A stretch of DNA of 55,560 nucleotides from Saccoglossus kowalevskii. Lineage: Eukaryota; Hemichordata; Enteropneusta; Harrimaniidae. A program made the translations under genes and the position numbers. The DNA lies in NCBI RefSeq assembly GCF_000003605.2, contig NW_003135242.1:1-55560 (forward strand). Reading direction: 5' to 3'. The notes beneath the pieces are model-generated. The model ran no database searches. It saw only the letters and a list, made by a program, of their open reading frames with translations, and was not told the DNA's origin. Numbering within the stretch: the first letter of the stretch is position 1; every line of letters begins with the position of its first letter. Below are positions 1-55,560 of this stretch, piece after piece.

Positions 1-405
1 TTCATCAATTTGAAAATAAATAAATTTCCATGTCTTTCTAATATTAATAAATGACATCACAGTAAAAAAGATGCAAGAACGTTGACTCATATCTTTGACA
101 TGTGTGTGATGAACAAAAAAATTTCTCCAGCTAGGTCACTCAAGAAGTCTCCCATGCAACTACTAACCACGCCCGATTGAGCTTAACTTTAGATTTTGTT
201 CGATTACTTACCCACACTACTGCTAAAGTAATTTGAAATTGACCTGAATTGGCGGCAATTTTATGTTTGAAAGTGTTTTAAAATTGATAGCGTTTGCACA
301 AGTAACTTCTTGAATTGACCTATGACCTGTACATACTCCCAGTAACACGACGCTTCTTTAACGGCATTTTAAGAAATATTTATTCACGTTTTCGAAGTGT
401 TAATT
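1..405 (+). repeat. Partial monomer P0 (left end)
   Basis: It holds the last ~405 bp of a monomer. The 5S-like core is on the minus strand at 147-195 with a T7 run at 115-121. Diverged: GTTGACTCAT instead of GTTGCCTCAT, TGCTAAAGTA, GGCGGCAATT, ACATACTCCC, CGCTTCTTTAA and GAAGTGTTAATTATG. CGCTTCTTTAA recurs only at the right edge (M58). DR1 is intact at 316-328. Confidence 0.95.
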
Positions 406-1362
406 ATGAGACCCGTCAATATAATATCCTATGTACCGTTTCCAAACGAATCTACAAACTTTGCAATCGCTTTAAACAACTTTGTAAGCAGTTTGCCTTC
501 GATTTTGCGGCTCGCAGTTGCGATAATCTGCTTATATATGGGGCATTTTCTAGACATTTACTCAATGTTTTCTGAATTTAACTGCGGGGTTGTCATTCCA
601 ATGATTTAGGTTAAATATAGAAGCAACTCCGCCAACGTTTCGAACGTTTTTTCCTACTTTTCGCGCTGTTTTCTATCAATTTTACAGTCAGTCAGCTCAT
701 GTGATACTCTGCTAATATAGACTGCGTTTATCTTTATCTGGCTTTTATTCATTTTTTGACTTTACAACTGCCGTTTTTTTATGTGCAAACAACTTAGGTC
801 AAACATACAAATAAATCTACAAACTTTGCAATCACTTTACACAACTTTGAATTCACTTTGCGCAACTTTTCACGCTACGTTAACAGCTAAAAACGCACTA
901 TGTGCCGTCAGCATCAACAAGTTGTAGGAAGTAATAGGAAAATTGAAAAAACTTTTCATGAACTTGAAAAAATAAATAAATTTTCATGTCTTTCTACTAT
1001 TAATAAATGACATCACAGTAAAAAAAGATGCAAGAACGTTGCCTCATATCTTTGACATGTGTGTGATGAAAAAAAAAAATTCTCCAGCTAGGTCACTCAA
1101 GAAGTCTCCCATGCAACTACTAACCACGCTCGATTGAGCTTAACTTTAGATTTTGTTCGATTACTTACCCACACTACTGCTTAAGTAATTTGAAATTGAC
1201 CTGAATTGGCGGCTATTTTATGTTTGAAAGTGTTTTAAAATTGATAGCGTTTGCACAAGTAACTTCTTGAATTGACCTATAACCTGTACATGCTCCCAGT
1301 AACACGACGCTACTTTAACGGCATTTTAAGAAATATTTATTCACGTTTTCGAAGTTTTAACT
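406..1362 (+). repeat. Monomer M1
   Basis: 957 bp, edge type. It starts ATGAGACCC and has ATCCTATGTACC (shared only with P59), CACGCTACG, CGCACTATGTG and GTTGTAGGAAGTAATAGG in place of the usual GTTGTTCTTTGAAAATAATAGG. 5S-like core (-) 1104-1152, with C to T in CACGCTCGATTG. T-run of about 11. The second DR1 half-site is changed (TAACCT). Confidence 0.95.
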
Positions 1363-2312
1363 ATGCGACCCGTCAATATAATATCCTGTGTACCGTTTCC
1401 AAACGAATCTACAAACTTTGCAATCGCTTTTAACAACTTTGTAAGCAGTTTGCCTTCGATTTTCCGGCTCGCAGTTGCGATAATCTGCTTATATATGGGG
1501 CATTTTCTAGACATTTACTCAATGTTTTCTGAATTTAACTGCGGGGTAGTCATTCCAATGACTTAGGTTAAATATAGAAGCAACTCCGCCAACGTTTCGA
1601 ACGTTTTTACCAACTTTTCACGCTGTTTTCTATCAATTTTAAAGTCAGTCAGCTCATGTGATACTCTGCTAACATAGACTGCTTTTATCTGGATTTTATT
1701 CATTTTTTGATTTTACAACTGCCGTTTTTTATGTGCAAACAACTTAAGTCAAACATACAAATAAATCTACAAACTTTGCAATCACTTTACACAACTTTGA
1801 ATTCACTTTACCCAACTTTTCACGCTACGTTAACAGCTAAAAACGCACTATGTGCCGTCATCATCAACAAGTTGTAAGAAGTAATAGGAAAATTGAAAAC
1901 ACTTTTCATGAATTTGAAAAAATAAATAAATTTCCATGTCTTTCTACTATTAATAAATGACACCACAGTAAAAAAAGATGCAAGAACGTTGCCTCATATC
2001 TTTGACATGTGTGTGATGAACAAAAAAAAATCTCCAGCTAGGTCACTCAAGAAGTCTCCCATGCAACTACTAACCACGCCCGATAGAGATTAACTTTAGA
2101 TTTTGTTCGATTACTTACCCAAACTACTGCTTAGGTAATTTGAAATTAATCTGAATTGGCGGCTATTTTATGTTTGAAAGTGTTTTAAAATTGATAGCGT
2201 TTGCACAAGTAACTTCTTGAATTGACCTGTAACCTGTACATGCTCCCAGTAACACGACGCTACTTTAATGGCATTTTAAGAAATATTTATTCACGTTTTC
2301 GAAGTTTTAACT
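1363..2312 (+). repeat. Monomer M2
   Basis: 950 bp, edge type. It has GCGGGGTAGTC, CTTAAGTCAAAC, TTACCCAACTT, CACGCTACG, CGCACTATGTG and GTTGTAAGAAGTAATAGG. 5S-like core (-) 2054-2102 carries GATAGAGATTAAC, altering the A-box equivalent; T9 run. The linker is GAAATTAATCTG. DR1 is damaged (CTGTAACCTG). Confidence 0.95.
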
Positions 2313-3267
2313 ATGCGACCCGTCAATATAATATCCTGTGTACCGTTTCCAAACGAATCTACAAACTTTGCAATCGCTTTTAACAACTTTGTAAGCAGTT
2401 TGCCTTCGATTTTTCGGCTCGCAGTTGCGATAATCTGCTTATATATGGGGCATTTTCTAGACATTTACTCAATGTTTTCTGAATTTAACTGCGGGGTTGT
2501 CATTCCAATGACTTAGGTTAAATATAGAGCAACTCCGCCAACGTTTCGATCGTTTTACCAACTTTTCACGCTGTTTTTCTAACAATTTTAAAGTCAGTCA
2601 GCTCATGTGATACTCTGCTAATATAGACTGCGTTTTACCTGGCTTTTATTCATTTTTTGATTTTACAACTGCCGTTTTTTATGTGCAAACAACTTAGGTC
2701 AAACATACAAACAAATCTACAAACTTTGCAATCACTTTACACAACTTTGAATTCACTTTGCGCAACTTTTCATGCCACGTTAACAGCTAAAAACGCACTG
2801 TGTGCCGTCAGCATCAACAAGTTGTTCTTTGAAAATAATAGGAAAATTGAAAAAACTTTTCATGAATTTGAAAAAATAAATAAATTTCCATGTCTTTCTA
2901 CTATTAATAAATGACATCACAGTAAAAAAAGATGCAAGAACGTTGCCTCATATCTTTGACATGTGTGTGATGAACAAAAAAAACTTTCTCCAGCTAGGTC
3001 ACTCAAGAAGTCTCCCATGCAACTACTAACCACGCCCGATTGAGCTTAACTTTAGATTTTGTTCGATTACTTACCCACACTACTGCTTAAGTAATTTGAA
3101 ATTGAAATGAATTGGCGGCTATTTTATGTTTGAAAGTGTTTTAAAATTGATAGCGTTTGCACAAGTAACTTCTTGAATTGACCTATGACCTGTACATGCT
3201 CCCAGTAACACGACGCTACTTTAACGGCATTTAAGAAATAGTTATTCACGTTTTCGAAGTTTTAACT
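2313..3267 (+). repeat. Monomer M3
   Basis: 955 bp. First interior-type copy, with GTTGTTCTTTG restored and TGTGTGCC. 5S-like core (-) 3010-3058; T8 run preceded by GAAAG. The linker is ATTGAAATG. One A is lost in GGCATTTAAG, and AATAGTTATT precedes the next anchor. Confidence 0.95.
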
Positions 3268-4223
3268 ATGCGACCCGTCAATATAATATCCTGTGTACCG
3301 TTTCCAAACAAATCTACAAACTTTGCAATCGCTTTTAACAACTTTGTAAGCAGTTTGCCTTCGATTTTTCGGCTCGCAGTTGCGATAATCTGCTTATATA
3401 TGGGGCATTTTCTAGACATTTACTCAATGTTTTCTGAATTTAACTGCGGGGTTGTCATTCCAATGACTTAGGTTAAATATAGAAGCAACTCCGCCAACGT
3501 TTCGAACGTTTTTACCAACTTTTCACGCTGTTTTCTAACAATTTTAAAGTCAGTCAGCTCATGTGATACTCTGCTAATATAGACTGCTTTTATCTGGCTT
3601 TTATTCATTTTTTGATTTTACAACTGCCGTTTTTTATGTGCAAACAACTTAGGTCAAACATACAAATAAATCTACAAACTTTGCAATCACTTTACACAAC
3701 TTTGAATTCACTTTGCGCAACTTTTCATGCCACGTTAACAGCTAAAAACGCACTGTGTGCCGTCAGCATCAACAAGTTGTTCTTTGAAAATAATAGGAAA
3801 ATTGAAAAAACTTTTCATGAATTTGAAAAAATAAATAAATTTCCATGTCTTTCTACTATTAATAAATGACATCACAGTAAAAAAAGATGCAAGAAAGTTG
3901 CCTCATATCTTTGACATGTGTGTGATGAACAAAAAAAAATGTCTCCAGCTAGGTCACTCAAGAAGTCTCCCATGCAACTACTAACCACGCCCGATTGAGC
4001 TTAACTTTAGATTTTGTTCGATTACTTACCCACACTACTGCTTAAGTAATTTGAAATTGACCTGAATTGGCGGCTATTTTATGTTTGAAAGTGTTTTAAA
4101 ATTGATGGCGTTTGCACAAGTAATTTCTTGAATTGACCTATGACCTGTACATGCTCCCAATAACACGACGCTACTTTAATGGCACTTTAAGAAATATTTA
4201 TTCACGTTTTTGAAGTTTTAACT
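3268..4223 (+). repeat. Monomer M4
   Basis: 956 bp. It has AAACAAATC (E to K in the 67-codon frame), CAAGAAAGTTGCC, ATGTCTCC, ATTGATGGCG, AATTTCTTG, AATGGCACTTTAAG and TTTTTGAAG. Most of this set recurs in M19. 5S-like core (-) 3965-4013. Confidence 0.95.
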
Positions 4224-5147
4224 ATAATATAATATAATATAATATCCTGTGTACCGTTTCCAAACGAATCTACAAACTTTGCAATCGCTTTTAACAACTT
4301 TGTAAGCAGTTTGCCTTCGATTTTTCGGCTCGCAGTTGCGATAATCTGCTTATATATGGGGCATTTTCTAGACATTTACTCAATGTTTTCTGAATTTAAC
4401 TGCGGGGTTGTCATTCCAATGACTTAGGTTAAATATAGAAGCAACTCCGCCAACGTTTCGAACGTTTTTACCAACTTTTCACGCTGTTTTCTAACAATTT
4501 TAAAGTCAGTCATCTCATGTGATACTCTGCTAATATAGACTGCTTTTATCTGGCTTTTATTCATTTTTTGATTTTACAACTGCCGTTTTTTATGTGCAAA
4601 CAAACTTTGCAATCACTTTACACAACTTTGAATTCACTTTGCGCAACTTTTCATGCCACGTTAACAGCTAAAAACGCACTGTGTGCCGTCAGCATCAACA
4701 AGTTGTTCTTTGAAAATAATAGGAAAATTGAAAAAACTTTTCATGAATTTGAAAAAATAAATAAATTTCCATGTCTTTCTACTATTAATAAATGACATCA
4801 CAGTAAAAAAAGATGCAAGAACGTTGCCTCATATCTTTGACATGTGTGTGATGAAAAAAAAAAATTCTCCAGCTAGGTCACTCAAGAAGTCTCCCATGCA
4901 ACTACTAACCACGCCCGATTGAGCTTAACTTTAGATTTTGTTCGATTACTTACCCACACTACTGCTTAAGTAATTTGAAATTGACGTGAATTGGCGGTTA
5001 TTTTATATTTGAAAGTGTTTTAAAATTGATAGCGTTTGCACAAGTAACATCTTGAATTGACCTATGACCTGTACATGCTCCCAGTAACACGACGCTACTT
5101 TAACGGCATTTTAAGAAATATTTATTCACGTTTTCGAAGTTTTAACT
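4224..5147 (+). repeat. Monomer M5, microsatellite replacement plus 30-bp deletion
   Basis: 924 bp. The anchor GCGACCCGTCAA is replaced, without length change, by repeats of ATAAT (4224-4244), as in M20. A 30-bp in-frame deletion at ~4603 removes the start of A2 including CTTAGGTCAAAC, between short AAAC-containing sequences. 5S-like core (-) 4889-4937; T11 run. The linker GACGTG with GGTTATTTTA and ACATCTTG is shared with M12 and M26. Confidence 0.95.
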
Positions 5148-6105
5148 ATGCGACCCGTCAATATAATATCCTGTGTACCGTTTCCAAACGAATCTACAAA
5201 CTTTGCAATCGCTTTTAACAACTTTGTAAGCAGTTTGCCTTCGATTTTTCGGCTCGCAGTTGCCATAATCTGCTTATATATGGGGCATTTTCTAGACATT
5301 TACTCAATGTTTTCTGAATTTAACTGCGGGGTTGTCATTCCAATGACTTAGGTTAAATATAGAAGCAACTCCGCCAACGTTTCGAACGTTTTTACCAACT
5401 TTTCACGCTGTTTTCTAACAATTTTAAAGTCAGTCAGCTCATGTGATACTCTGCTAATATAGACTGCTTTTATCTGGCTTTTATTCATTTTTTGATTTTA
5501 CAACTGCCGTTTTTTTATGTGCAAACAACTTAGGTCAAACATACAAATAAATCTACAAACTTTGCAATCACTTTACACAACTTTGAATTCACTTTGCGCA
5601 ACTTTTCACGCCACGTTAACAGCTAAAAACGCACTGTGTGCCGTCAGCATCAACAAGTTGTTCTTTGAAAATAATAGGAAAATTGAAAAAACTTTTCATG
5701 AATTTGAAAAAATAAATAAATTTCCATGTCTTTCTACTATTAATAAATGACATCACAGTAAAAAAAAGATGCAAGAACGTTGCCTCAGATCTTTGACATG
5801 TGTGTGATGAACAAAAAAATATTTCTCCAGCTAGGTCACTCAAGAAGTCTCCCATGCAACTACTAACCACGCCCGATTGAGCTTAACTTTAGATTTTGTT
5901 CGATTACTTACCCACACTACTGCTTAAGTAATTTGAAATTGAAATGAATTGGCGGCTATTTTATGTTTGAAAGTGTTTTAAAATTGATAGCGTTTGCACA
6001 AGTAACTTCTTGAATTGACCTATGACCTGTACATGCTCCCAGTAACACGACGCTACTTTAACGGCATTTTAAGAAATATTTATTCACGTTTTCGAAGTTT
6101 TAACT
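5148..6105 (+). repeat. Monomer M6
   Basis: 958 bp. It carries TTGCCATAATC, CCTCAGATCT and the TATTTTTTT-type terminator tract. 5S-like core (-) 5847-5895; linker ATTGAAATG. Confidence 0.95.
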
Positions 6106-7062
6106 ATGCGACCCGTCAATATAATATCCTGTGTACCGTTTCCAAACGAATCTACAAACTTTGCAATCGCTTTTAACAACTTTGTAAGCAGTTTGCCTTC
6201 GATTTTTCGGCTCGCAGTTGCGATAATCTGCTTATATATGGGGCATTTTCTAGACATTTACTCAATGTTTTCTGAATTTAACTGCGGGGTTGTCATTCCA
6301 ATGACTTAGGTTAAATATAGAAGCAACTCCGCCAACGTTTCGAACGTTTTTACCAACTTTTCACGCTGTTTTCTAACAATTTTAAAGTCAGTCAGCTCAT
6401 GTGATACTCTGCTAATATAGACTGCTTTTATCTGGCTTTTATTCATTTTTTTATTTTACAACTGCCGTTTTTTATGTGCAAACAACTTAGGTCAAACATA
6501 CAAATAAATCTACAAACTTTGCAATCACTTTACACAACTTTGAATTCACTTTGCGCAACTTTTCACGCCACGTTAACAGCTAAAAACGCACTGTGTGCCG
6601 TCAGCATCAACAAATTGTTCTTTGAAAATAATAGGAAAATTGGAAAAACATTTCATGAATTTGAAAAAATAAATAAATTTCCATGTCTTTCTACTATTAA
6701 TAAATGACATCACAGTAAAAAAAAGATGCAAGAACGTTGCCTCATATCTTTGACATGTGTGTGATGAACAAAAAAATATTTCTCCAGCTAGGTCACTCAA
6801 GAAGTCTCCCATGCAACTACTAACCACGCCCGATTGAGCTTAACTTTAGATTTTGTTCGATTACTTACCCACACTACTGCTTAAGTAATTTGAAATTGAA
6901 ATGAATTGGCGGCTATTTTATGTTTGAAAGTGTTTTAAAATTGATAGCGTTTGCACAAGTAACTTCTTGAATTGACCTATGACCTGTACATGCTCCCAGT
7001 AACACGACGCTACTTTAACGGCATTTTAAGAAATATTTATTCTCGTTTTCGAAGTTTTAACT
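6106..7062 (+). repeat. Monomer M7
   Basis: 957 bp. It has CAAATTGTTC, GGAAAAACATTTC, the TATTTTTTT terminator type and linker ATTGAAATG, and ends with the TTATTCTCG variant. 5S-like core (-) 6804-6852. Confidence 0.95.
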
Positions 7063-8017
7063 ATGCGACCCGTCAATATAATATCCTGTGTACCATTTCC
7101 AAACAAATCTACAAACTTTGCAATCGCTTTTAACAACTTTGTAAGCAGTTTGCCTTCGATTTTTCGGCTCGCAGTTGCGATAATCTGCTTATATATGGGG
7201 CATTTTCTAGACATTTACTCAATGTTTTCTGAATTTAACTGCGGGGTTGTCATTCCAATGACTTAGGTTAAATATAGAAGCAACTCCGCCAACGTTTCGA
7301 ACGTTTTTACCAACTTTTCACGCTGTTTTCTAACAATTTTAAAGTCAGTCAGCTCATGTGATACTCTGCTAATATAGACTGCTTTTATCTGGCTTTTATT
7401 CATTTTTTGATTTTACAACTGCCGTTTTTTATGTGCAAACAACTTAGGTCAAACATACAAATAAATCTACAAACTTTGCAATCACTTTACACAACTTTGA
7501 ATTCACTTTGCGCAACTTTTCACGCCACGTTAACAGCTAAAAACGCACTGTGTGCCGTCAGCATCAACAAGTTGTTCTTTGAAAATAATAGGAAAATTGA
7601 AAAAACTTTTCATGAATTTGAAAAAATAAATAAATTTCCATGTCTTTCTACTATTAATAAATGACATCACAGTAAAAAAAGATGCAAGAACGTTGCCTCA
7701 TATCTTTGACATGTGTGTGATGAACAAAAACAATTTCTCCAGCTAGGTCACTCAAGAAGTCTCCCATGCAACTACTAACCACGCCCGATTGAGCTTAACT
7801 TTAGATTTTGTTCGATTACTTACCCACACTACTGCTTAAGTAATTTGAAATTGTCCTGAATTAGCGGCTATTTTATGTTTGAAAGGGTTTTAAAATTGAT
7901 AGCGTTTGCACAAGTAACTTCTTGAATTGACCTATGATCTGTACATGCTCCCAGTAACACGACGCTACTTTAACGGCATTTTAAGGAATATTTATTCACG
8001 TTTTCGAAGTTTTAACT
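7063..8017 (+). repeat. Monomer M8
   Basis: 955 bp. It has ACCATTTCC and AAACAAATC, with the TTGTTTTT terminator type. 5S-like core (-) 7759-7807. GAATTAGCGG and AAAGGGTTTT occur, and DR1 is damaged by GATCTG. Confidence 0.95.
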
Positions 8018-8974
8018 ATGCGACCCGTCAATATAATATCCTGTGTACCGTTTCCAAACGAATCTACAAACTTTGCAATCGCTTTTAACAACTTTGTAAG
8101 CAGTTTGCCTTCGATTTTTCGGCTCGCAGTTGCGATAATCTGCTTATATATGGGGCATTTTCTAGACATTTACTCAATGTTTTCTGAATTTAACTGCGGG
8201 GTTGTCATTCCAATGACTTAGGTTAAATATAGAAGCAACTCCGCCAACGTTTCGAACGTTTTTACCAACTTTTCACGCTGTTTTCTAACAATTTTAAAGT
8301 CAGTCAGCTCATGTGATACTCTGCTAATATAGACTGCTTTTATCTGGCTTTTATTCATTTTTTGATTTTACAACTGCCGTTTTTTATGTGCAAACAACTT
8401 AGGTCAAACATACAAATAAATCTACAAACTTTGCAATCACTTTACACAACTTTGAATTCACTTTGCGCAACTTTTCATGCCACGTTAACAGCTAAAAACG
8501 CACTGTGTGCCGTCAGCATCAACAAGTTGTTCTTTGAAAATAATAGGAAAATTGAAAAAACTTTTCATGAATTTGAAAAAATAAATAAATTTTCATGTCT
8601 TTCTACTATTAATAAATGACATCACAGTAAAAAAAAGATGCAAGAACGTTGCCTCATATCTTTGACATGTGTGTGATGAACAAAAAAAACTTTCTCCAGC
8701 TAGGTCACTCAAGAAGTCTCCCATGCAACTACTAACCACGCCCGATTGAGCTTAACTTTAGATTTTGTTCGATTACTTACCCATACTACTGCTTAAGTAA
8801 TTTGAAATTGAAATGAATTGGCGGCTATTTTATGTTTGAAAGTGTTTTAAAATTGATAGCGTTTGCACAAGTAACTTCTTGAATTGACCTATGACCTGTA
8901 CATGCTCCCAGTAACACGACGCTACTTTAACGGCATTTTAAGAAATATTTATTCACGTTTTCGAAGTTTTAACT
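8018..8974 (+). repeat. Monomer M9
   Basis: 957 bp, near the interior consensus. It has CCCATACTAC, AATTTTCATG and linker ATTGAAATG. 5S-like core (-) 8716-8764. Confidence 0.95.
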
Positions 8975-9178: not shown

Positions 9179-9202
9179 GTTAAATATAGAAGCAACTCCG
9201 CC

Positions 9203-9244
9203 AACGTTTCGAACGTTTTTACCAACTTTTCACGCTGTTTTCTA
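9203..9244 (+). repeat. Subrepeat block A1 with AACGTT inverted repeat (reference copy, M10)
   Basis: Two 21-bp degenerate units (9203-9223 and 9224-9244) of the same family as A2 and A3. The first starts with AACGTT-TCG-AACGTT (9203-9217), a 6-bp self-complementary word repeated with a 3-nt spacer that can fold as a small hairpin. Confidence 0.75.
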
Positions 9245-9342
9245 ACAATTTTAAAGTCAGTCAGCTCATGTGATACTCTGCTAATATAGACTGCTTTTAT
9301 CTGGCTTTTATTCATTTTTTGATTTTACAACTGCCGTTTTTT

Positions 9343-18517: not shown

Positions 18518-19475
18518 ATAATATAATATAATATAATATCCTGTGTACCGTTTCCAAACGAATCTACAAACTTTGCAATCGCTTTTAACAACTTTGTAAG
18601 CAGTTTGCCTTCGATTTTTCGGCTCGCAGTTGCGATAATCTGCTTATATATGGGGCATTTCCTAGATATTTACTCAATGTTTTCTGAATTTAACTGCGGG
18701 GTTGTCATTCCAATGACTTAGGTTAAATATAGAAGCAACTCCGCCAACGTTTCGAACGTTTTTACCAACTTTTCACGCTGTTTTCTATCAATTTTAAAGT
18801 CAGTCAGCTCATGTGATACTCTACTAATATAGACTGCTTTTATCTGGCTTTTATTCATTTTTTGATTTTACAACTGCCGTTTTTTATGTGCAAACAACTT
18901 AGGTCAAACATACAAATAAATCTACAAACTTTTGCAATCACTTTTACACAACTTTGAATTCACTTTACCCAAATTTTCACGCTAAGTTAACAGCTAAAAA
19001 CGCACTAAGTGCCGTCAGCATCAACAAAGTGTCTTTGAAAATAATAGGAAAATTGAAAAAACTTTTCATGAATTTGAAAAAATAAATAAATTTTCCATGT
19101 CTTTCTACTATTAATAAATGACATCACAGTAAAAAAAGATGCAAGAACGTTGCCTCATATCTTTGACATGTGTGTGATGAACAAAAAAAAATTTCTCCAG
19201 CTAGGTCACTCAAGAAGTCTCCCATGCAACTACTAACCACGCCCGATTGAGCTTAACTTTAGATTTTGTTCGATTACTTACCCACACTACTGCTTAAGTA
19301 ATTTGAAATTGGCCTGAATTGGCGGCTATTTTATGTTTGAAAGTGTTTTAAAATTGATAGCGTTTGCACAAGTAACTTCTTGAATTGACCTATGACCTGT
19401 ACATGCTCCCAGTAACACGACGCTACTTTAACGGCAATTTAAGAAATATTTATTCACGTTTTCGAAGTTTTAACT
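18518..19475 (+). repeat. Monomer M20, microsatellite replacement
   Basis: 958 bp. The anchor is replaced by the same ATAAT repeat as M5. It has CCTAGATATT, CTACTAATAT, extra T in ACTTTTGC and CTTTTACAC, and CAAAGTGTC (clustered indels 18925-19095). 5S-like core (-) 19217-19265; linker ATTGGCCTG. Confidence 0.95.
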
Positions 19476-20430
19476 ATGCGACCCGTCAATATAATATCCT
19501 GTGTACCGTTTCCAAACGAATCTACAAACTTTGCAATCGCTTTTAACAACTTTGTAAGCAGTTTGCCTTCGATTTTTCGGCTCGCAGTTGCGATAATCTG
19601 CTTATATATGGGGCATTTTCTAGACATTTACTCAATGTTTTCTGAATTTAACTGCGGGGTTGTCATTCCAATGACTTAGGTTAAATATAGAAGCAACTCC
19701 GCCAACGTTTCGAACGTTTTTACCAACTTTTCACGCTGTTTTCTAACAATTTTAAAGTCAGTCAGCTCATGTGATACTCTGCTAATATAGACTGCTTTTA
19801 TCTGGCTTTTATTCATTTTTTGATTTTACAACTGCCGTTTTTTATGTGCAAACAACTTAGGTCAAACATACAAATAAATCTACAAACTTTGCAATCACTT
19901 TACACAACTTTGAATTCACTTTGCGCAACTTTTCACGCCACGTTAACAGCTAAAAACGCACTGTGTGCCGTCAGCATCAACAAGTTGTTCTTTGAAAATA
20001 ATAGGAAAATTGAAAAAACTTTTCATGAATTTGAAAAAATAAATAAATTTCCATGTCTTTCTACTATTAATAAATGACATCACAGTAAAAAAAGATGCAA
20101 GAACGTTGCCTCATATCTTTGACATGTGTGTGATGAACAAAAACAATTTCTCCAGCTAGGTCACTCAAGAAGTCTCCCATGCAACTACTAACCACGCCCG
20201 ATTGAGCTTAACTTTAGATTTTGTTCGATTACTTACCCACACTACTGCTTAAGTAATTTGAAACTGGCCTGAATTGGCGGCTATTTTATGTTTGAAAGTG
20301 TTTTAAAATTGATAGCGTTTGCACAAGTAACTTCTTGAATTGACCTATGACCTGTACATGCTCCCAGTAACACGACGCTACTTTAACGGCATTTTAAGAA
20401 ATATTTATTCACGTTTTCGAAGTTTTAACT
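19476..20430 (+). repeat. Monomer M21
   Basis: 955 bp, close to consensus. TTGTTTTT terminator; 5S-like core (-) 20172-20220; linker AAACTGGCC. Confidence 0.95.
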
Positions 20431-23302: not shown

Positions 23303-24261
23303 ATGCGACCCGTCAATATAATATCCTGTGTACCGTTTTCAAACGAATCTACAAACTTTGCAATCGCTTTTAACAACTTTGTAAGCAGTTTGCCTTCGAT
23401 TTTTCGGCTCGCAGTTGCCATAATCTGCTTATATATGGGGCATTTTCTAGACATTTACTCAATGTTTTCTGAATTTAACTGCGGGGTTGTCATTCCAATG
23501 ACTTAGGTTAAATATAGAAGCAACTCCGCCAACGTTTCGAACGTTTTTACCAACTTTTCACGCTGTTTTCTAACAATTTTAAAGTCAGTCAGCTCATGTG
23601 ATACTCTGCTAATATAGACTGCTTTTATCTGGCTTTTATTCATTTTTTGATTTTACAACTGCCGTTTTTTATGTGCAAACAACTTAGGTCAAACATACAA
23701 ATAAATCTACAAACTTTGCAATCACTTTACACAACTTTGAATTCACTTTGCGCAACTTTTCACGCCACGTTAACAGCTAAAAACGCACTGTGTGCCGTCA
23801 GCATCAACAAGTTGTTCTTTGAAAATAATAGGAAAATTGAAAAAACTTTTCATGAATTTGAAAAAATAAATAAATTTCCATGTCTTTCTACTATTAATAA
23901 ATGACATCACAGTAATAAAAAAGATGCAAGAACGTTGCCTCAGATCTTTGACATGTGTGTGATGAACAAAAAAATATTTCACCAGCTAGGTCACTCAAGA
24001 AGTCTCCCATGCAACTACTAACCACGCCCGATTGAGCTTAACTTTAGATTTTGTTCGATTACTTACCCACACTACTGCTTAAATAATTTGAAATTGTCCT
24101 GAATTGGCGACTATTTTATGTTTGAAAGTGTTTTAAAATTGATAGCGTTTGCACAAGTAACTTCTTGAATTGACCTATGACCTGTACATGCTCCCAGTAA
24201 CACGACGCTACTTTAACGTTCATTTTAAGAAATAGTTATTCACGTTTTCGAAGTTTTAACT
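23303..24261 (+). repeat. Monomer M25
   Basis: 959 bp. It has GTTTTCAAACG, TTGCCATAATC, GTAATAAAAAAG, CCTCAGATCT and CACCAGC. 5S-like core (-) 24002-24050. TTAAATAATTTG and GGCGACTATT follow, and it ends AACGTTCATTTTAAG and AATAGTTATT, the haplotype that precedes each recombinant A3 copy. Confidence 0.95.
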
Positions 24262-24860
24262 ATGCGACCCGTCAATATAATATCCTGTGTACCGCTTCCA
24301 AACGAATCTATAAACTTTGCAATCACTTTACACAACTTTGAATTCACTTTGCGCAACTTTTCACGCCACGTTAACAGCTAAAAACGCACTGTGTGCCGTC
24401 AGCATCAACAAGTTGTTCTTTGAAAATAATAGGAAAATTGAAAAAAAACTTTTCATGAATTTGAAAAAATAAATAAATTTCCATGTCTTTCTAATATTAA
24501 TAAATGACATCACAGTAAAAAAAGATGCAAGAACGTTGCCTCATATCTTTGACATGTGTGTGATGAACAAAAAAACTTTCTCCAGCTAGGTCACTCAAGA
24601 AGTCTCCCATGCAACTACTAACCACGCCCGATTGAGCTTAACTTTAGATTTTGTTCGATTACTTACCCACACTACTGCTTAAGTAATTTGAAATTGACGT
24701 GAATTGGCGGTTATTTTATGTTTGAAAGTGTTTTAAAATTGATAGCGTTTGCACAAGTAACATCTTGAATTGACCTATGACCAGTACATGCTCCCAGTAA
24801 CACGACGCTACTTTAACGGCATTTTAAGAAATATTTATTCACGTTTTCGAAGTTTTAACT
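24262..24860 (+). repeat. Monomer M26, 599-bp deletion copy
   Basis: The sequence passes from the A3 start (ACCGCTTCCAAACGAATC, then TATAAACTTTGCAATC) directly into A2 (ACTTTACACAAC). This removes ~357 bp including A1. 5S-like core (-) 24602-24650. Linker GACGTG, GGTTATTTTA and ACATCTTG are as in M12. DR1 is damaged (GACCAGTAC). Confidence 0.95.
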
Positions 24861-46840: not shown

Positions 46841-47799
46841 ATGCGACCCGTCAATATAATATCCTGTGTACCGTTTCCAAACGAATCTACAAACTTTGCA
46901 ATCGCTTTTAACAACTTTGTAAGCAGTTTGCCTTCGATTTTTCGGCTCGCAGTTGCGATAATCTGCTTATATATGGGGCATTTTCTAGACATTTACTCAA
47001 TGTTTTCTGAATTTAACTGCGGGGTTGTCATTCCAATGACTTAGGTTAAATATAGAAGCAACTCCGCCAACGTTTCGAACGTTTTTTACCAACTTTTCAC
47101 GCTGTTTTCTATCAATTTTAAAGTCAGTCAGCTCATGTGATACTCTGCTAATATAGAGTGCTTTTATCTGGCTTTTATTCATTTTTTTGATTTTACAACT
47201 GCCGTTTTTTATGTGCAAACAACTTAGGTCAAACATACAAATAAATCTACAAACTTTGCAATCACTTTACACAACTTTGAATTCACTTTGCGCAACTTTT
47301 CACGCCACGTTAACAGCTAAAAACGCACTGTGTGCCGTCAGCATCAACAAGTTGTTCTTTGAAAATAATAGGAAAATTTAAAAAAACTTTTCATGAATTT
47401 GAAAAAATAAATAAATTTCCATGTCTTTCTAATACTAATAAATGACATCACAGTAAAAAAAGATGCAAGAACGTTGCCTCATATCTTTGACATGTGTGTG
47501 ATGAACAAAAAAAATTTCTCCAGCTAGGACACTCAAGAAGTCTCCCATGCAACTACTAACCACGCCCGATTGAGCTTAACTTTAGATTTTGTTCGGTTAC
47601 TTACCCACACTACTGCTTAAGTAATTTGAAATTGACCTGAATTGGCGGCTATTTTATGTTTGAAAGTGTTTTAAAATTGATAGCGTTTGCACAAGTAACT
47701 TCTTGAATTGACCTATGACCTGTACATGCTCCCAGTAACACGACGCTACTTTAACGTTCATTTTAAGAAATAGTTATTCACGTTTTCGAAGTTTTAACT
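46841..47799 (+). repeat. Monomer M50
   Basis: 959 bp. It has CTATCAATTTT, ATAGAGTGC, AATTTAAAAAAAC, TAATACTAAT and AGGACACTC. 5S-like core (-) 47540-47588, then TTCGGTTAC; ends AACGTTCATTTT and AATAGTTATT. From ~47370 on it parallels M35. Confidence 0.95.
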
Positions 47800-48398
47800 A
47801 TGCGACCCGTCAATATAATATCCTGTGTACCGTTTCCAAACGAATCTACAAACTTTGCAATCACTTTACACAACTTTGAATTCACTTTGCGCAACTTTTC
47901 ACGCCACGTTAACAGCTAAAAACGCACTGTGTGCCGTCAGCATCAACAAGTTGTTCTTTGAAAATAATAGGAAAATTGAAAAAACTTTTCATGAATTTGA
48001 AAAAATAAATAAATTTCCATGTCTTTCTACTATTAATAAATGACATCACAGTAAAAAAAAGATGCAAGAACGTTGCCTCAGATCTTTGACATGTGTGTGA
48101 TGAACAAAAAAATATTTCTCCAGCTAGGTCACTCAAGAAGTCTCCCATGCAACTACTAACCACGCCCGATTGAGCTTAATTTTAGATTTTGTTCGATTAC
48201 TTACCCACACTACTGCTTAAGTAATTTGAAATTGTCCTGAATTGGCGGCTATTTTATGTTTGAAAGTGTTTTAAAATTGATAGCGTTTGCACAAGTAACT
48301 TCTTGAATTGACCTATGACCTGTACATGCTCCCAGTATCACGACGCTACTTTAACGGCATTTTAAGAAATATTTATTCTCGTTTTCGAAGTTTTAACT
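47800..48398 (+). repeat. Monomer M51, 599-bp deletion copy
   Basis: Same junction as M26: A3's AATCTACAAACTTTGCAATC runs straight into A2's ACTTTACACAACTTTG, removing ~357 bp. It has CCTCAGATCT and the TATTTTTTT terminator. 5S-like core (-) 48140-48188; TTAATTTTAG; AGTATCACG (as M48); ends TTATTCTCG. Confidence 0.95.
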
Positions 48399-49350
48399 AT
48401 GCGACCCGTCAATATAATATCCTGTGTACCATTTCCAAACGAATCTACAAACTTTGCAATCGCTTTTAACAACTTTGTAAGCAGTTTGCCTTCGATTTTT
48501 CGGCTCGCAGTTGCGATAATCTGCTTATATATGGGGCATTTTCTAGACATTTACTCAATGTTTTCTGAATTTAACTGCGGGGTTGTCATTCCAATGACTT
48601 AGGTTAAATATAGAAGCAACTCCGCCAACGTTTCGAACGTTTTTACCAACTTTTCAGGCTGTTTTCTAACAATTTTAAAGTCAGTCAGCTCATGTGATAC
48701 TCTGCTAATATAGACTGCTTTTATTTGGCTTTTATTCATTTTTTGATTTTACAACTGCCGTCTTTTATGTGCAAACAACTTAGGTCAAACATACAAATAA
48801 ATCTACAAACTTTGCAATCACTTTACACAACTTTGAATTCACTTTGCGCAACTTTTCACGCCACGTTAACAGCTAAAAACGCACTGTGTGCGTCAGCATC
48901 ACAAGTGTTCTTTGAAAATATAGGAAAATTTAAAAAAACTTTTCATGAATTTGAAAAAATAAATAAATTTCCATGTCTTTCTACTATTAATAAATGACAT
49001 CACAGTAAAAAAAGATGCAAGAACGTTGCCTCATATCTTTGACATGTGTGTGATGAACAAAAACAATTTCTCCAGCTAGGTCACTCAAGAAGTCTCCCAT
49101 GCAACTACTACCCACGCCCGATTGAGCTTAACTTTAGATTTTGTTCGATTACTTACCCACACTACTGCTTAAGTAATTTGAAACTGGCCTGAATTGGCGG
49201 CTATTTTATGTTTGAAAGTGTTTTAAAATTGATAGCGTTTGCACAAGTAACTTCTTGAATTGACCTATGACCTGTACATGCTCCCAGTAACACGACGCTA
49301 CTTTAACGGCATTTTAAGAAATATTTATTCTCGTTTTCGAAGTTTTAACT
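48399..49350 (+). repeat. Monomer M52
   Basis: 952 bp. It has ACCATTTCC, TTCAGGCTG, TTTTATTTGG and CCGTCTTTT, with clustered one-base deletions at 48890-48935. 5S-like core (-) 49092-49140 with CTACTACCCACG; TTGTTTTT; linker AAACTGGCC; ends TTATTCTCG. Confidence 0.95.
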
Positions 49351-50307
49351 ATGCGACCCGTCAATATAATATCCTGTGTACCATTTCCAAACGAATCTAC
49401 AAACTTTGCAATCGCTTTTAACAACTTTGTAAGCAGTTTGCCTTCGATTTTTCGGCTCGCAGTTGCCATAATCTGCTTATATATGGGGCATTTTCTAGAC
49501 ATTTACTCAATGTTTTCTGAATTTAACTGCGGGGTTGTCATTCCAATGACTTAGGTTAAATATAGAAGCAACTCCGCCAACGTTTCGAACGTTTTTACCA
49601 ACTTTTCACGCTGTTTTCTAACAATTTTAAAGTCAGTCAGCTCATGTGATACTCTGCTAATATAGACTGCTTTTATCTGGCTTTTATTCATTTTTTGATT
49701 TTACAACTGCCGTTTTTTATGTGCAAACAACTTAGGTCAAACATACAAATAAATCTACAAACTTTGCAATCACTTTACACAACTTTGAATTCACTTTGCG
49801 CAACTTTTCACGCCACGTTAACAGCTAAAAACGAACTGTGTGCCGTCAGCATCAACAAGTTGTTCTTTGAAAATAATAGGAAAATTGAAAAAACTTTTCA
49901 TGAATTTGAAAAAATAAATAAATTTCCATGTCTTTCTACTATTAATAAATGACATCACAGTAAAAAAAAGATGCAAGAACGTTGCCTCAGATCTTTGACA
50001 TGTGTGTGATGAACAAAAAAATATTTCTCCAGCTAGGTCACTCAAGAAGTCTCCCATGCAACTACTAACCACGCCCGATTGAGCTTAACTTTAGATTTTG
50101 TTCGATTACTTACCCACACTACTGCTTAAGTAATTTGAAATTGTCCTGAATTGGCGGCTATTTTATGTTTGAAAGTGTTTTAAAATTGATAGCGTTTGCA
50201 CAAGTAACTTCTTGAATTGACCTATGACCTGTACATGCTCCCAGTAACACGACGCTACTTTAACGGCATTTTAAGAAATATTTATTCTCGTTTTCGAAGT
50301 TTTAACT
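49351..50307 (+). repeat. Monomer M53
   Basis: 957 bp. It has ACCATTTCC, TTGCCATAATC, AAACGAACTG (as M22), CCTCAGATCT and the TATTTTTTT terminator. 5S-like core (-) 50049-50097; linker GTCCTG; ends TTATTCTCG. Confidence 0.95.
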
Positions 50308-51263
50308 ATGCGACCCGTCAATATAATATCCTGTGTACCATTTCCAAACGAATCTACAAACTTTGCAATCGCTTTTAACAACTTTGTAAGCAGTTTGCCT
50401 TCGATTTTTCGGCTCGCAGTTGCCATAATCTGCTTATATATGGGGCATTTTCTAGACATTTACTCAATGTTTTCTGAATTTAACTGCGGGGTTGTCATTC
50501 CAATGACTTAGGTTAAATATAGAAGCAACTCCGCCAACGTTTCGAACGTTTTTACCAACTTTTCACGCTGTTTTCTAACAATTTTAAAGTCAGTCAGCTC
50601 ATGTGATACTCTGCTAATATAGACTGCTTTTATCTGGCTTTTATTCATTTTTTGATTTTACAACTGCCGTTTTTTTATGTGCAAACAACTTAGGTCAAAC
50701 ATACAAATAAATCTACAAACTTTGCAATCACTTTACACAACTTTGAATTCACTTTGCGCAACTTTTCACGCCACGTTAACAGCTAAAAACGCACTGTGTG
50801 CCGTCAGCATCAACAAATTGTTCTTTGAAAATAATAGGAAAATTGGAAAAACTTTTCATGAATTTGAAAAAATAAATAAATTTCCATGTCTTTCTACTAT
50901 TAATAAATGACATCACAGTAAAAAAAGATGCAAGAACGTTGCCTCATATCTTTGACATGTGTGTGATGAACAAATAAAATTTCTCCAGCTAGGTCACTCA
51001 AGAAGTCTCCCATGCAACTACTAACCACGCCCGATTGAGCTTAACTTTAGATTTTGTTCGATTTCTTACCCACACTACTGCTTAAGTAATTTGAAATTGA
51101 AATGAATTGGCGGCTATTTTATGTTTGAAAGTGTTTTAAAATTGATAGCGTTTGCACAAGTAACTTCTTGAATTGACCTATGACCTGTACATGCTCCCAG
51201 TAACACGACGCTACTTTAACGGCATTTTAAGAAATATTTATTCACGTTTTCGAAGTTTTAACT
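50308..51263 (+). repeat. Monomer M54
   Basis: 956 bp. It has ACCATTTCC, TTGCCATAATC, CAAATTGTT, ATTGGAAAAAC and the TTTTATTT terminator. 5S-like core (-) 51005-51053; GATTTCTTACC; linker ATTGAAATG. Confidence 0.95.
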
Positions 51264-52218
51264 ATGCGACCCGTCAATATAATATCCTGTGTACCGTTTC
51301 CAAATGAATCTACAAACTTTGCAATCGCTTTTAACAACTTTGTAAGCAGTTTGCCTTCGATTTTTCGGCTCGCAGTTGCGATAATCTGCTTATATATGGG
51401 GCATTTTCTAGACATTTACTCAATGTTTTCTGAATTTAACTGCGGGGTTGTCATTCCAATGACTTAGGTTAAATATAGAAGCAACTCCGCCAACGTTTCG
51501 AACGTTTTTACCAACTTTTCACGCTGTTTTCTAACAATTTTAAAGTCAGTCAGCTCATGTGATACTCTGCTAATATAGACTGCTTTTATCTGGCTTTTAT
51601 TCATTTTTTGATTTTACAACTGCCGTTTTTTATGTGCAAACAACTTAGGTCAAACATACAAATAAATCTACAAACTTTGCAATCACTTTACACAACTTTG
51701 AATTCACTTTGCGCAACTTTTCACGCCACGTTAACAGCTAAAAACGCACTGTGTGCCGTCAGCATCAACAAATTGTTCTTTGAAAATAATAGGAAAATTG
51801 GAAAAACTTTTCATGAATTTGAAAAAATAAATAAATTTCCATGTCTTTCTACTATTAATAAATGACATCACAGTAAAAAAAGATGCAAGAACGTTGCCTC
51901 ATATCTTTGACATGTGTGTGATGAACAAATAAAATTTCTCCAGCTAGGTCACTCAAGAAGTCTCCCATGCAACTACTAACCACGCCCGATTGAGCTTAAC
52001 TTTAGATTTTGTTCGATTACTTACCCACACTACTGCTTAAGTAATTTGAAATTGAAATGAATTGGCGGCTATTTTATGTTTGAAAGTGTTTTAAAATTGA
52101 TAGCGTTTGCACAAGTAACTTCTTGAATTGACCTATGACCTGTACATGCTCCCAGTAACACGACGCTACTTTAACGGCATTTTAAGAAATATTTATTCAC
52201 GTTTTCGAAGTTTTAACT
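51264..52218 (+). repeat. Monomer M55
   Basis: 955 bp. It has CAAATGAATC, CAAATTGTT, ATTGGAAAAAC and the TTTTATTT terminator. 5S-like core (-) 51960-52008; linker ATTGAAATG. Its second half is nearly the same as M54's, which suggests a recent adjacent duplication. Confidence 0.95.
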
Positions 52219-53173
52219 ATGCGACCCGTCAATATAATATCCTGTGTACCGTTTCCAAACGAATCTACAAACTTTGCAATCGCTTTTAACAACTTTGTAA
52301 GCAGTTTGCCTTCGATTTTTCGGCTCGCAGTTGCGATAATCTGCTTATATATGGGGCATTTTCTAGACATTTACTCAATGTTTTCTGAATTTAACTGCGG
52401 GGTTGTCATTCCAATGACTTAGGTTAAATATAGAAGCAACTCCGCCAACGTTTCGAACGTTTTTACCAACTTTTCACGCTGTTTTCTAACAACTTTAAAG
52501 TCAGTCAGCTCATGTGATACTCTGCTAATATAGACTGCTTTTATCTGGCTTTTATTCATTTTTTGATTTTACAACTGCCGTTTTTTTATGTGCAAACAAC
52601 TTAGGTCAAACATACAAATAAATCTACAAACTTTGCAATCACTTTACACACTTTGAATTCACTTTGCGCAACTTTTCACGCCACGTTAACAGCTAAAAAC
52701 GCACTGTGTGCCGTCAGCATCAACAAGTTGTTCTTTGAAAATAATAGGAAAATTGAAAAAACTTTTCATGAATTTGAAAAAATAAATAAATTTCCATGTC
52801 TTTCTACTATTAATAAATGACATCACAGTAAAAAAAGATGCAAGAACGTTGCCTCATATCTTTGACATGTGTGTGATGAACAAAAACAATTTCTCCAGCT
52901 AGGTCACTCAAGAAGTCTCCCATGCAACTACTAACCACGCCCGATTGAGCTTAACTTTAGATTTTGTTCGATTACTTACCCACACTACTGCTTAAGTAAT
53001 TTGAAACTGGCCTGAATTGGCGGCTATTTTTTGTTTGAAAGTGTTTTAAAATTGATAGCGTTTGCACAAGTAACTTCTTGAATTGACCTATGACCTGTAC
53101 ATGCTCCCAGTAACACGACGCTACTTTAACGGCATTTTAAGAAATATTTATTCACGTTTTCGAAGTTTTAACT
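52219..53173 (+). repeat. Monomer M56
   Basis: 955 bp. It has AACAACTTTAAAG and CTTTACACACTTTG (two bases lost in A2). TTGTTTTT; 5S-like core (-) 52915-52963; linker AAACTGGCC; TATTTTTTGTTTG. Confidence 0.95.
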
Positions 53174-54127
53174 ATGCGACCCGTCAATATAATATCCTGT
53201 GTACCGTTTCCAAACGAATCTACAAACTTTGCAATCGCTTTTAACAACTTTGTAAGCAGTTTGCCTTCGATTTTTCGGCTGGCAGTTGCCATAATCTGCT
53301 TATTTATGGGGCATTTTCTAGACATTTACTCAATGTTTTCTGAATTTAACTGCGGGGTTGTCATTCCAATGACTTAGGTTAAATATAGAAGCAACTCCGC
53401 CAACGTTTCGAACGTTTTTACCAACTTTTCACGCTGTTTTCTAACAATTTTAAAGTCAGTCAGCTCATGTGATACTCTGCTAATATAGACTGCTTTTATC
53501 TGGCTTTTATTCATTTTTTGATTTTACAACTGCCGTTTTTTATGTGCAAACAACTTAGGTCAAACATACAAATAAATCTACAAACTTTGCAATCACTTTA
53601 CACAACTTTGAATTCACTTTGCGCAACTTTTCACGCCACGTTAACAGCTAAAAACGCACTGTGTGCCGTCAGCATCAACAAGTTGTTCTTTGAAAATAAT
53701 AGGAAAATTGAAAAAACTTTTCATGAATTTGAAAAAATAAATAAATTTCCATGTCTTTCTACTATTAATAAATGACATCACAGTAAAAAAGATGCAAGAA
53801 CGTTGCCTCATATCTTTGACATGTGTGTGATGAACAAAAACAATTTCTCCAGCCAGGTCACTCAAGAAGTCTCCCATGCAACTACTAACCACGCTCGATT
53901 GAGCTTAACTTTAGATTTTGTTCGATTACTTACCCACACTACTGCTTAAGTAATTTGAAACTGGCCTGAATTGGCGGCTATTTTATGTTTGAAAGTGTTT
54001 TAAAATTGATAGCGTTTGCACAAGTAACTTCTTGAATTGACCTATGACCTGTACATGCTCCCAGTAACACGACGCTACTTTAACGGCATTTTAAGAAATA
54101 TTTATTCACGTTTTCGATGTTTTAACT
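53174..54127 (+). repeat. Monomer M57
   Basis: 954 bp. It has GGCTGGCAGTTGCCATAATC, TTATTTATGG and CAGCCAGGTC. 5S-like core (-) 53869-53917 with CACGCTCGATTG (as M1); linker AAACTGGCC; TTCGATGTTTT. Confidence 0.95.
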
Positions 54128-55082
54128 ATGCGACCCGTCAATATAATATCCTGTGTACCGTTTCCAAACGAATCTACAAACTTTGCAATCGCTTTTAACA
54201 ACTTTGTAAGCAGTTTGCCATCGATTTTTCGGCTCGCAGTTGCGATAATCTGCTTATATATGGGGCATTTTCTAGACATTTACTCAATGTTTTCTGAATT
54301 TAACTGCGGGGTTGTCATTCCAATGACTTAGGTTAAATATAGAAGCAACTCCGCCAACGTTTCGAACGTTTTTACCAACTTTTCACGCTGTTTTCTAACA
54401 ATTTTAAAGTCAGTCAGCTCATGTGATACTCAGCTCATATAGACTGCTTTTATCTGGCTTTTATTCATTTTTTGATTTTACAACTGCCGTTTTTTATGTG
54501 CAAACAACTTAGGTCAAACATACAAATAAATCTACAATATTGCCATCACTTTGCCCAATATTGAATTCACTTTGCGCAAATTTTCACGCTTCGTTGACAG
54601 CTAAAAACGCACTATGTGTCGTCAGCATCAACAAGTTGTTCTTTGAAAATAATAGGAAAATTGAAAAAAACTTTTCATGAATTTGAAAAAAATAAATAAA
54701 TTTCCATGTCTTTCTACTATAAATAATTGACATCACTGTAGAAAAAGATGCATACGTTGTCTCATATCTTTGACATGTGTGTGATGAACAAAATAAAATT
54801 TTCTCCAGCTAGTTTACTCAAGAAGTCTCCCATGCAACTACTAACCACACCCGATTGAGCTTAACTTTTGATTTTGTTCGATTACTTACCCACACTACTG
54901 CTTAAGTAATTTGAAATTGACCTGAATTGGCAGCTATTTTATGTTTGAAAGTGTTTTAAAATTGATAACGTTTGCACAAGTAACTTCTTGAATTGACCTA
55001 TGACCTCTAATGCTCCCAGTAACACAACGCTTCTTTAACGGCATTTTAAGAAATATTTATTCACGTTTTCGAAGTTTTAACT
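54128..55082 (+). repeat. Monomer M58 (right-edge type)
   Basis: 955 bp, clearly diverged from ~54430 on. It has ACTCAGCTCATATAG, ACAATATTGCCATCACTTTG, CCCAATATTG, CACGCTTCGTTGAC, CACTATGTGTCG, AATAATTGACATCACTGTAG and GATGCATACG. 5S-like core (-) 54825-54873 with CCACACCCG; terminator TTTTATTTT; TAGTTTACTC (AGGTCA lost); ACCTCTAATGCTCCC; CACAACGCTTCTTTAACGG. DR1 is intact. Confidence 0.95.
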
Positions 55083-55560
55083 ATGGGACCCGTCAATATA
55101 ATATCCTATGTACCATTTCCAAACGAATCTACAAACTTTGCAATCGTTTTTCACAACTTTGTAAGCAGTTTGTCTTCGAATTTTCGGTTCGCAGTTGCGA
55201 TAATCTGCTTATATATGGGGCATTTTCTAGACATTTACTCAATGTTTTCTGAATTTAACTGCGGGGTTGTCATTCCAATGACTTAGGTTAAATATAGAAG
55301 CAACTCCGCCAACGTTTCGAACGTTTTTACCAACTTTTCACGCTGTTTTCTAACAATTTTAAAGTCAGTCAGCTCATGTGATACTCAGCTCATATAGACT
55401 GCTTTTATCTGGCTTTTATTCATTTTTTGATTTTACAACTGCCGTTTTTTATGTGCAAACAACTTAGTCAAACATACAAATAAATCTACCATATTGCCAT
55501 CACTTTGCCCAATATTGAATTCACTTTGCGCAAATTTTCACGCTTCGTTGACAGCTAAAA
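55083..55560 (+). repeat. Partial monomer P59 (right end)
   Basis: First 478 bp of a monomer: ATGGGACCC, ATCCTATGTACC, CGTTTTTCACAAC, TTTGTCTTCGAATTTTCGG and GGTTCGCAG. Its A2 copy repeats M58's diverged CCATATTGCCATCACTTTG, CCCAATATTG and CACGCTTCGTTGAC. It ends before the 5S-like element. Confidence 0.95.

What the first reader, a model, noticed from the sequence alone, without database searches (positions are those of the whole stretch)
1..55560. 5S rRNA-derived Pol III promoter-like element in every monomer of a 955-bp satellite
On the minus strand each monomer carries the 3' half of a 5S-like sequence. The intermediate-element and C-box region matches eukaryotic 5S at 25 of 28 bases in the consensus copy. 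It is followed after 25-26 nt by a T-run, against about 27 nt in a true 5S gene. So the spacing from internal control region to terminator is kept, while the 5' half of 5S is not recognisable. With ~59 copies in 55 kb, the array could produce short Pol III RNAs, sequester TFIIIA/TFIIIC, or act through TFIIIC-bound chromatin. 5S-derived SINEs (SINE3 class) and 5S-derived satellites are known, but I do not recognise this 955-bp family.
Basis: partly seen in the sequence, partly recalled or inferred. Interest (0 to 1): 0.85.

Follow-up and report, generated by a model that had tools for sequence, protein, structure and literature searches.

The report
Satellite DNA carrying 5S promoter relic
Every unit of this long repeated DNA carries a 43-letter piece of a 5S ribosomal RNA gene, the stretch that switches such genes on, and parts of that piece have changed far less than the DNA right beside it, so the repeat may still attract the 5S gene's own activator protein.

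Summary
The window is one whole contig of an unnamed eukaryotic genome: 59 head-to-tail monomers of about 955 bp. The 5S resemblance is real, in 59 of 59. It is not a '3' half' but a sharply bounded 43-nt block, 5S positions 49-91, 39/43 identical to this genome's own 5S gene; 5S 1-48 and 92-118 are at background. A T-run follows 23-29 nt later in 59/59.

Searches of the whole genome explain the origin. It also holds a 216-bp satellite made of a full-length second-type 5S (34/34 helix pairs kept in its consensus, three by double changes) and a 98-bp spacer. The block shares A61 with it, and the sequence upstream is colinear with its spacer. A sister satellite of about 944 bp carries the same block: intermediate element 92-95% and C-box core 96-97% identical to host 5S, while its flanks match the 955-bp family only 59-66%.

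So: a 5S-gene relic in an old satellite superfamily, with the TFIIIA-reading elements preferentially kept. TFIIIA binding is plausible; transcription is untested; another monomer segment is conserved even better. 5S-derived satellites are known; this reduced form, kept in two families, is a new variant.

The parts
1..55560 (+). Satellite array, 59 head-to-tail monomers of ~955 bp; the whole contig
19071..20027 (+). Representative monomer (m21, 0.2% from consensus); features below are given for it
19217..19259 (-). 5S-derived block, 5S positions 49-91 (consensus 145-187); 39/43 to host 5S
19244..19258 (-). A-box equivalent (5S 50-64), 12/15 to host
   Evidence: box limits from PMC3342222
19236..19241 (-). 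Intermediate element (5S 67-72), 6/6 to host; intact in 56 of 59 copies
19217..19228 (-). C-box core (5S 80-91), 12/12 to host; intact in 54 of 59 copies; the rest of the C box (92-97) is not kept
19183..19191 (-). T-run 25 nt after the block, candidate Pol III terminator
19260..19338 (-). 79 nt colinear with spacer end and 5S 1-48 of the 216-bp satellite (47/79; the signal is in the spacer part)
19434..19957 (+). Three diverged ~180-bp subunits (consensus 362-540, 541-720, 721-885), pairwise 115/170, 108/150, 105/141 of aligned columns; window coordinates by offset from the consensus
19645..19702 (+). Segment best conserved between the 955-bp and ~944-bp families (consensus 573-630), better than the 5S block; coordinates by offset
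23855..24457 (+). Short monomer lacking ~358 bp, joined inside the 55-bp internal repeat
47396..47993 (+). Second short monomer with the same junction

Best explanation
Shown: the block is a piece of a 5S rRNA gene of this lineage, present in two satellite families (955 bp and ~944 bp) that are 77% identical, so it was in their common ancestor. Most likely it came from a 216-bp tandem repeat that holds a second type of 5S gene. Around it the rest of the 5S gene has decayed to background, while the intermediate element and C-box core stayed at or near the host sequence in both families. Inferred: this uneven decay reflects constraint on TFIIIA binding. TFIIIA reads the intermediate element and C box, so many monomers probably still offer a TFIIIA site. 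In the 955-bp family, with the A box 12/15 intact and a T-run at 5S-like spacing, TFIIIC, TFIIIB and Pol III may sometimes be recruited to make an unstructured ~115-125-nt RNA, starting about 48 nt before the block and ending in the T-run. The array itself homogenises by recombination between repeats, of which the two short monomers are a trace.
For: Host 5S arrays (47 of 47 scored hits over cut-off) and 39/43 match. Only the 43-bp block is shared between the monomer and four fetched stretches of 5S units with spacers. A61 shared with the 216-bp family, 40/43. Upstream colinear with it: local score 14.0 against a maximum of 12.0 in 565 windows; 79 nt, global score 6.0 against a maximum of 1.0 in 338 windows; block 40/43 against upstream 47/79, Fisher p 5e-5 (the 79-nt length was chosen from the alignment). 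Sister family, 10 of 12 fetched loci: 34 sites, IE 94.6% and C-box core 96.0% to host over the 31 sites without indels; placed by flanks alone, 27 sites, IE 92%, C-box core 97%. Flanks to the 955-bp family 65.6% (48 nt upstream) and 58.8% (25 nt downstream). Like for like, between-family identity is 0.90 over 5S 67-91, rank 17 of 955 windows, against 0.67-0.70 in neighbouring 30-nt bins. T4 or longer within 45 nt in 33 of 34 sister sites. No T4 inside the would-be transcript in 59 of 59. IE and C box as TFIIIA sites, A box as general Pol III element: PMC3342222, passages.
Against: No expression or binding data. Within the window the block is not less variable (296 of 912 windows as low or lower). 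Consensus 573-630 is better conserved between families, so conservation is not special to the block; the whole 43-mer ranks 81 of 955. C box 92-97 is not kept (2 of 6, strings). A box is the worst kept box in sisters. T-run spacing is met by 35 of 955 positions. 5S 1-48 alone is background against the 216-bp family (rank 797 of 1910), and an anchored extension test was met by 1 of 201 windows. Placement required an alignment across the block, which favours kept blocks; one search was run to check that.
Confidence: 0.58

Rival explanations
1. Neutral passenger: a 5S-gene fragment caught in a satellite and copied with it, with no binding or transcription; its good preservation is luck or local gene conversion from the 5S-type arrays.
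For: Block not less variable inside the window; another segment better conserved; in PcP190 the whole repeat, not only the 5S part, is transcribed, which the authors take against transcription as the reason for 5S-part conservation (PMC11675491, passages); A box the worst kept box in sisters.
Against: IE and C-box core at 92-97% to host while flanks are 59-66% between families; conversion from 5S would be expected to repair the A box and flanks, and 955-specific letters at 59, 60 and 78 persist.
Confidence: 0.32
2. SINE3 insertion: a 5S-headed retroposon landed in an older ~180-bp repeat and was amplified with it.
For: The block lies in the ~430-bp part without ~180-bp subunits; imperfect 16-bp direct repeat flanks that part (13/16; 18 of 500 shuffles as good); in lepidopteran SINE3 and Ajax the promoter part is best kept (PMC10886601 section 3.7).
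Against: Upstream homology runs into the spacer of a tandem 5S-type unit; of the 100 listed exact block-core hits, 96 lie on the two 955-bp array contigs (86 more are unlisted); a T-run right after the 5S part would stop a SINE transcript.
Confidence: 0.06
3. LTR-TRIM with a 5S promoter in its LTR (Cassandra/Ajax type) turned into a tandem array.
For: Cassandra forms tandem arrays (PMC7215508 abstract); Ajax keeps only A box, IE and C box (PMC10886601).
Against: No clear primer-binding site: best 11 of 14 over 12 recalled tRNA ends on both strands; monomer built largely of ~180-bp subunits.
Confidence: 0.02
4. Chance resemblance to 5S.
For: Below Rfam gathering score, with an unrelated family at a better E-value in two of three stretches.
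Against: 39/43 to the host's own 5S, including C82 seen in none of eight recalled 5S; 0 of 300 shuffles reach the score.
Confidence: 0.01

Closest known systems
PcP190 satellite of hyloid frogs (PMC11675491, passages read)
   Same: Tandem satellite with a region similar to the transcribed 5S; transcripts reported in RNA-seq
   Different: PcP190 is ~190 bp with a 120-bp 5S-like region; the 955-bp monomer keeps only 43 nt. The 216-bp family of this genome is the true parallel to PcP190.
5S-derived centromeric satellite of the fish Hoplias malabaricus (seen only as a cited title; the name 5S-HindIII is recalled)
   Same: Satellite derived from 5S rDNA
   Different: Paper not seen; sequence not available here
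Ajax TRIM of nemerteans (PMC10886601, abstract and three sections read)
   Same: 5S-derived stretch limited to A box, IE and C box; RNA fold reported not 5S-like
   Different: Ajax is an LTR element with a tRNA-Leu primer site; no clear primer site found here
Cassandra TRIM of plants (PMC10853983 passages and one section; PMC7215508 abstract)
   Same: 5S similarity centred on the internal control region, with terminator; can form tandem arrays
   Different: LTR element of plants; here a satellite joined to a 5S-type spacer
SINE3 / 5S-derived SINEs, e.g. HaSE3, PxSE4 (PMC3272025, PMC8010984, passages)
   Same: HaSE3 is most similar to 5S in A box, IE and C box; PxSE4/5 carry those boxes
   Different: Dispersed retroposons with a SINE body and, where shown, LINE-like tail; here tandem

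Membership tests
5S rRNA gene (RF00001) | Full-length 5S at or above gathering score 38 | tested here: not met
   0 at gathering in the window; 15.6-20.4 bits in three tested stretches; host genes 105-113 bits
5S-derived satellite | Tandem array | tested here: met
   59 monomers; both fetched ends of C4155 lie in the same array
5S-derived satellite | Monomer part homologous to the host 5S | tested here: met
   39/43; colinear with the 216-bp 5S-type unit
PcP190-type 5S satellite | ~120-bp conserved region similar to the whole transcribed 5S | tested here: not met
   Only 5S 49-91 in the 955-bp monomer; met by the 216-bp family
Type 1 Pol III promoter | Intermediate element (67-72) intact | tested here: met
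   6/6 in the consensus, intact in 56 of 59 copies
Type 1 Pol III promoter | C box (80-97) intact | tested here: inconclusive
   80-91 12/12, intact in 54 of 59 copies; 92-97 only 2 of 6 (strings)
Type 1 Pol III promoter | A box (50-64) intact | tested here: inconclusive
   12/15 in the 955-bp family; 61% (31 sites, ungapped) or 75% (27 sites, gapped) in the sister family
Type 1 Pol III promoter | Transcription by Pol III | not testable with these tools
   No RNA or ChIP data
SINE3 | Dispersed copies with TSD and LINE-like tail | tested here: inconclusive
   96 of 100 listed exact block-core hits on the two array contigs, 86 unlisted; 16-bp direct repeat 13/16, 18 of 500 shuffles as good; tail not tested
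TRIM with 5S promoter (Cassandra, Ajax) | Primer-binding site next to an LTR | tested here: inconclusive
   Best 11 of 14 over 12 recalled tRNA ends, about what chance gives by my own estimate; LTR ends not tested

The most novel reading that the evidence does not exclude
Two satellite families of one superfamily keep working TFIIIA sites under selection after losing the 5S gene around them: roughly a thousand TFIIIA-binding modules in satellite arrays that act as a TFIIIA store or sink, seed array chromatin, or fire short Pol III RNAs, so that satellite DNA is wired to the supply of the 5S activator.
Probability: 0.3. Interest if true: 0.8.

Novelty: new variant of a known kind. Interest (0 to 1): 0.57.

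Why it matters
One genome shows a whole series: main 5S arrays, a second 5S type turned into a 216-bp satellite, and two ~950-bp satellites in which little but the promoter elements of 5S is left, with the TFIIIA-reading ones best kept. That lets one ask directly whether satellites keep a transcription-factor site on purpose, by comparing decay of elements and flanks and by testing TFIIIA binding.

Tried and rejected
Rfam at gathering, ARAGORN and ORFs of at least 50 aa in one 2-kb stretch (seven ORFs of 53-85 aa) gave no gene. Exact-pattern scans of viral contigs and genome contigs and blastn of one monomer against phages and plasmids: no match. Box scans of the consensus: one B-box and two A-box matches on the minus strand, not in a tRNA-type order, and no CENP-B box. 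Higher-order periodicity of monomers: none clear, lag means 0.018-0.021 for lags 1-24. Structured-RNA idea: no support in the 955-bp family (fold z 0.31 and -0.12). Downstream homology to the 216-bp unit: none. SINE3 and TRIM origins: see rivals. Papers: '955 bp' with satellite and monomer gave 0 papers; further listings; I saw no description of this family in them, but only an open-access library was searched. How many of the 287 hits are 216-bp units was not checked beyond the 20 loci cut.
Full report
What the window is. It is the whole of contig C2708 of an unnamed 572-Mb genome in 4830 contigs. It holds 59 head-to-tail monomers: 56 of 926-960 bp, two short ones and one cut by the contig end. 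Monomers differ from their consensus by 1.1% on average (57 of 59; the two short ones left out). Both fetched ends of contig C4155 (136,615 bp) lie in the same array. The 21-nt core of the 5S block has 186 exact matches in the genome: 52 in the window, 44 listed on C4155, four listed on other contigs, 86 unlisted.

The observation. The minus strand of each monomer has a block matching 5S 49-91: 35/43 ungapped to recalled human 5S, 39/43 to the host's own 5S. Host 5S genes form arrays of ~1139-bp and ~1579-bp units; 47 of 47 scored hits were over the Rfam cut-off. Host and block share T52, T58, G68 and C82, which recalled human 5S lacks; C82 is in none of eight recalled 5S. Chance is out. Against the host the block differs at 59, 60, 61 and 78 only. 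The intermediate element (67-72) is 6/6 and the C-box core (80-91) 12/12; both are intact in 51 of 59 copies; the A box (50-64) is 12/15. Positions of 49-91 that are invariant in the eight recalled 5S are kept 18 of 18. Box limits are those of PMC3342222 (passages).

Limits of the block. BLAST of the monomer against four fetched stretches of host 5S units with spacers finds only this 43-bp block; 5S 1-48 ranks 523 of 1910 windows and 92-118 ranks 905 of 1910. C-box positions 92-97 match at 2 of 6. A T-run of 4 or more starts 23-29 nt after the block in 59 of 59 copies, with no T4 in the 48 nt before the block or in between. In the consensus 35 of 955 positions have a first T4 at that distance and 14 also a clean body: suggestive, not strong. 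Rfam and a CM from the recalled 5S give weak scores, and an unrelated Rfam family has the better E-value in two of three stretches; these models align end to end.

Build of the monomer. Consensus 362-540, 541-720 and 721-885 are three diverged ~180-bp subunits (115/170, 108/150, 105/141 of aligned columns). The 5S block lies in the remaining ~430 bp. Two short monomers lack ~358 bp with the junction inside a 55-bp internal repeat. A 16-bp direct repeat (13/16) flanks the ~430-bp part, reached by 18 of 500 shuffles.

A second 5S family in the same genome. A pattern that leaves out host 5S and the 955-bp block gave 287 exact hits, control 0. The 20 loci cut from them, on four contigs, are a 216-bp satellite: a full-length 5S-like region plus a 98-bp spacer. 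In the seven loci tested its units score 40-98 bits with RF00001 (the lowest cut by locus ends), against 106-113 for three host genes in the same call. Its consensus (109 distinct units) differs from the main 5S at 9 positions plus one insertion; 8 of the 9 are in helices, and all 34 mapped pairs stay standard, three through changes on both sides (7-112, 17-61, 30-47). So it descends from a 5S once selected as RNA. Among the 109 units today pairing is 0.929, the same as with shuffled partners (0.929), so present copies show no ongoing covariation. Its block is not its least variable part: 0.056 against 0.044 in 1-48, 0.081 in 92-118 and 0.091 in the spacer.

Where the 955-bp block came from. 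It shares A61 with the 216-bp family (40/43). The sequence upstream is colinear with the end of the 216-bp spacer and the 5S 5' half. Local score over 100 nt is 14.0 against a maximum of 12.0 in 565 windows. Over 79 nt 47 match, global score 6.0 against a maximum of 1.0 in 338 windows (length chosen from the alignment). A stricter anchored extension reaches 6.0, met by 1 of 201 windows. The signal is in the spacer part: 5S 1-48 alone is background (rank 797 of 1910), so the 5' half is inferred from order, not seen. Block 40/43 against upstream 47/79: Fisher p 5e-5. Downstream there is no signal.

A sister satellite. Querying with a subunit part of a 78% diverged relic (L064, C994) found arrays of ~944-bp units on many contigs. 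One 20-mer seen in several of their blocks has 804 exact hits. Identity to the 955-bp consensus is 77% (10 of the 12 loci cut). Of 34 blocks placed with a 313-nt segment spanning the block, the 31 without indels match the host at 94.6% in IE, 96.0% in C-box core, 86% in 73-79 and 60.6% in the A box. Because that placement favours kept blocks, I repeated it with the flanks alone: 27 blocks, IE 92%, C-box core 97%, 73-79 85%, A box 75% (gaps allowed). Flanks match the 955-bp family at 65.6% (48 nt upstream) and 58.8% (25 nt downstream); a T-run lies within 45 nt in 33 of 34. Like for like, between-family identity is 0.90 over 5S 67-91 (rank 17 of 955 windows) and 0.84 over the 43-mer (rank 81), against 0.67-0.70 in neighbouring bins; the best segment is elsewhere (consensus 573-630, up to 0.96). 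In L075, where TRF finds no array, three blocks keep 22, 23 and 28 of 30 in 62-91: too few to test.

Reading. Uneven decay with IE and C-box core spared and the rest of 5S lost is what TFIIIA-site constraint would leave, and not what plain decay of a 5S gene leaves. Full Pol III promoter use is less certain, and likeliest in the 955-bp family. The would-be RNA has no special fold, so if made it is no 5S substitute. Within the window the block shows no extra constraint (296 of 912 windows as low or lower); the copies are so alike that power is low.

Comparison with the known. PcP190 of frogs is a ~190-bp satellite with a 120-bp 5S region and RNA-seq evidence of transcription (PMC11675491, passages); the 216-bp family is its parallel, the 955-bp family is not. 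Ajax elements keep only A box, IE and C box in an LTR (PMC10886601); Cassandra holds the control region in its LTRs (PMC10853983) and forms tandem arrays (PMC7215508, abstract); HaSE3 is most like 5S in the same boxes (PMC3272025, passages). These show that a control-region-only 5S piece can be kept as a promoter module. The 955-bp satellite may work like them; membership in either is not supported.

Noticed in passing
L043-L062 (contigs C111, C242, C404, C554 of G000): 216-bp satellite whose unit is a full-length second-type 5S with three double compensatory changes against the main 5S (34/34 pairs kept in the consensus) plus a 98-bp spacer; possibly a once functional alternative 5S gene turned satellite.
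   Followed up: partly
L068-L077 (C113, C884, C4722, C4284, C3979, C1592 of G000): Sister satellite of ~944 bp and relics of it, 77% identical to the 955-bp family, also carrying the 5S block; one 20-mer of it has 804 exact hits in the genome.
   Followed up: yes
window 19645-19702 (consensus 573-630): The segment best conserved between the two satellite families (up to 0.96 over 21 nt), function unknown.
   Followed up: no
window 23855-24457 and 47396-47993: Two short monomers with the same ~358-bp deletion inside a 55-bp internal repeat; they share two variants that few other monomers have, so perhaps one event copied.
   Followed up: partly
C3485, C2212, C3801 of G000: Main 5S genes come in two array types, ~1139-bp and ~1579-bp units, nearly identical in the gene.
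   Followed up: no
window 443-497 and 808-861 (first monomer): 55-bp internal repeat, holding ~21-bp subrepeats in its second copy, within the ~180-bp subunits.
   Followed up: partly
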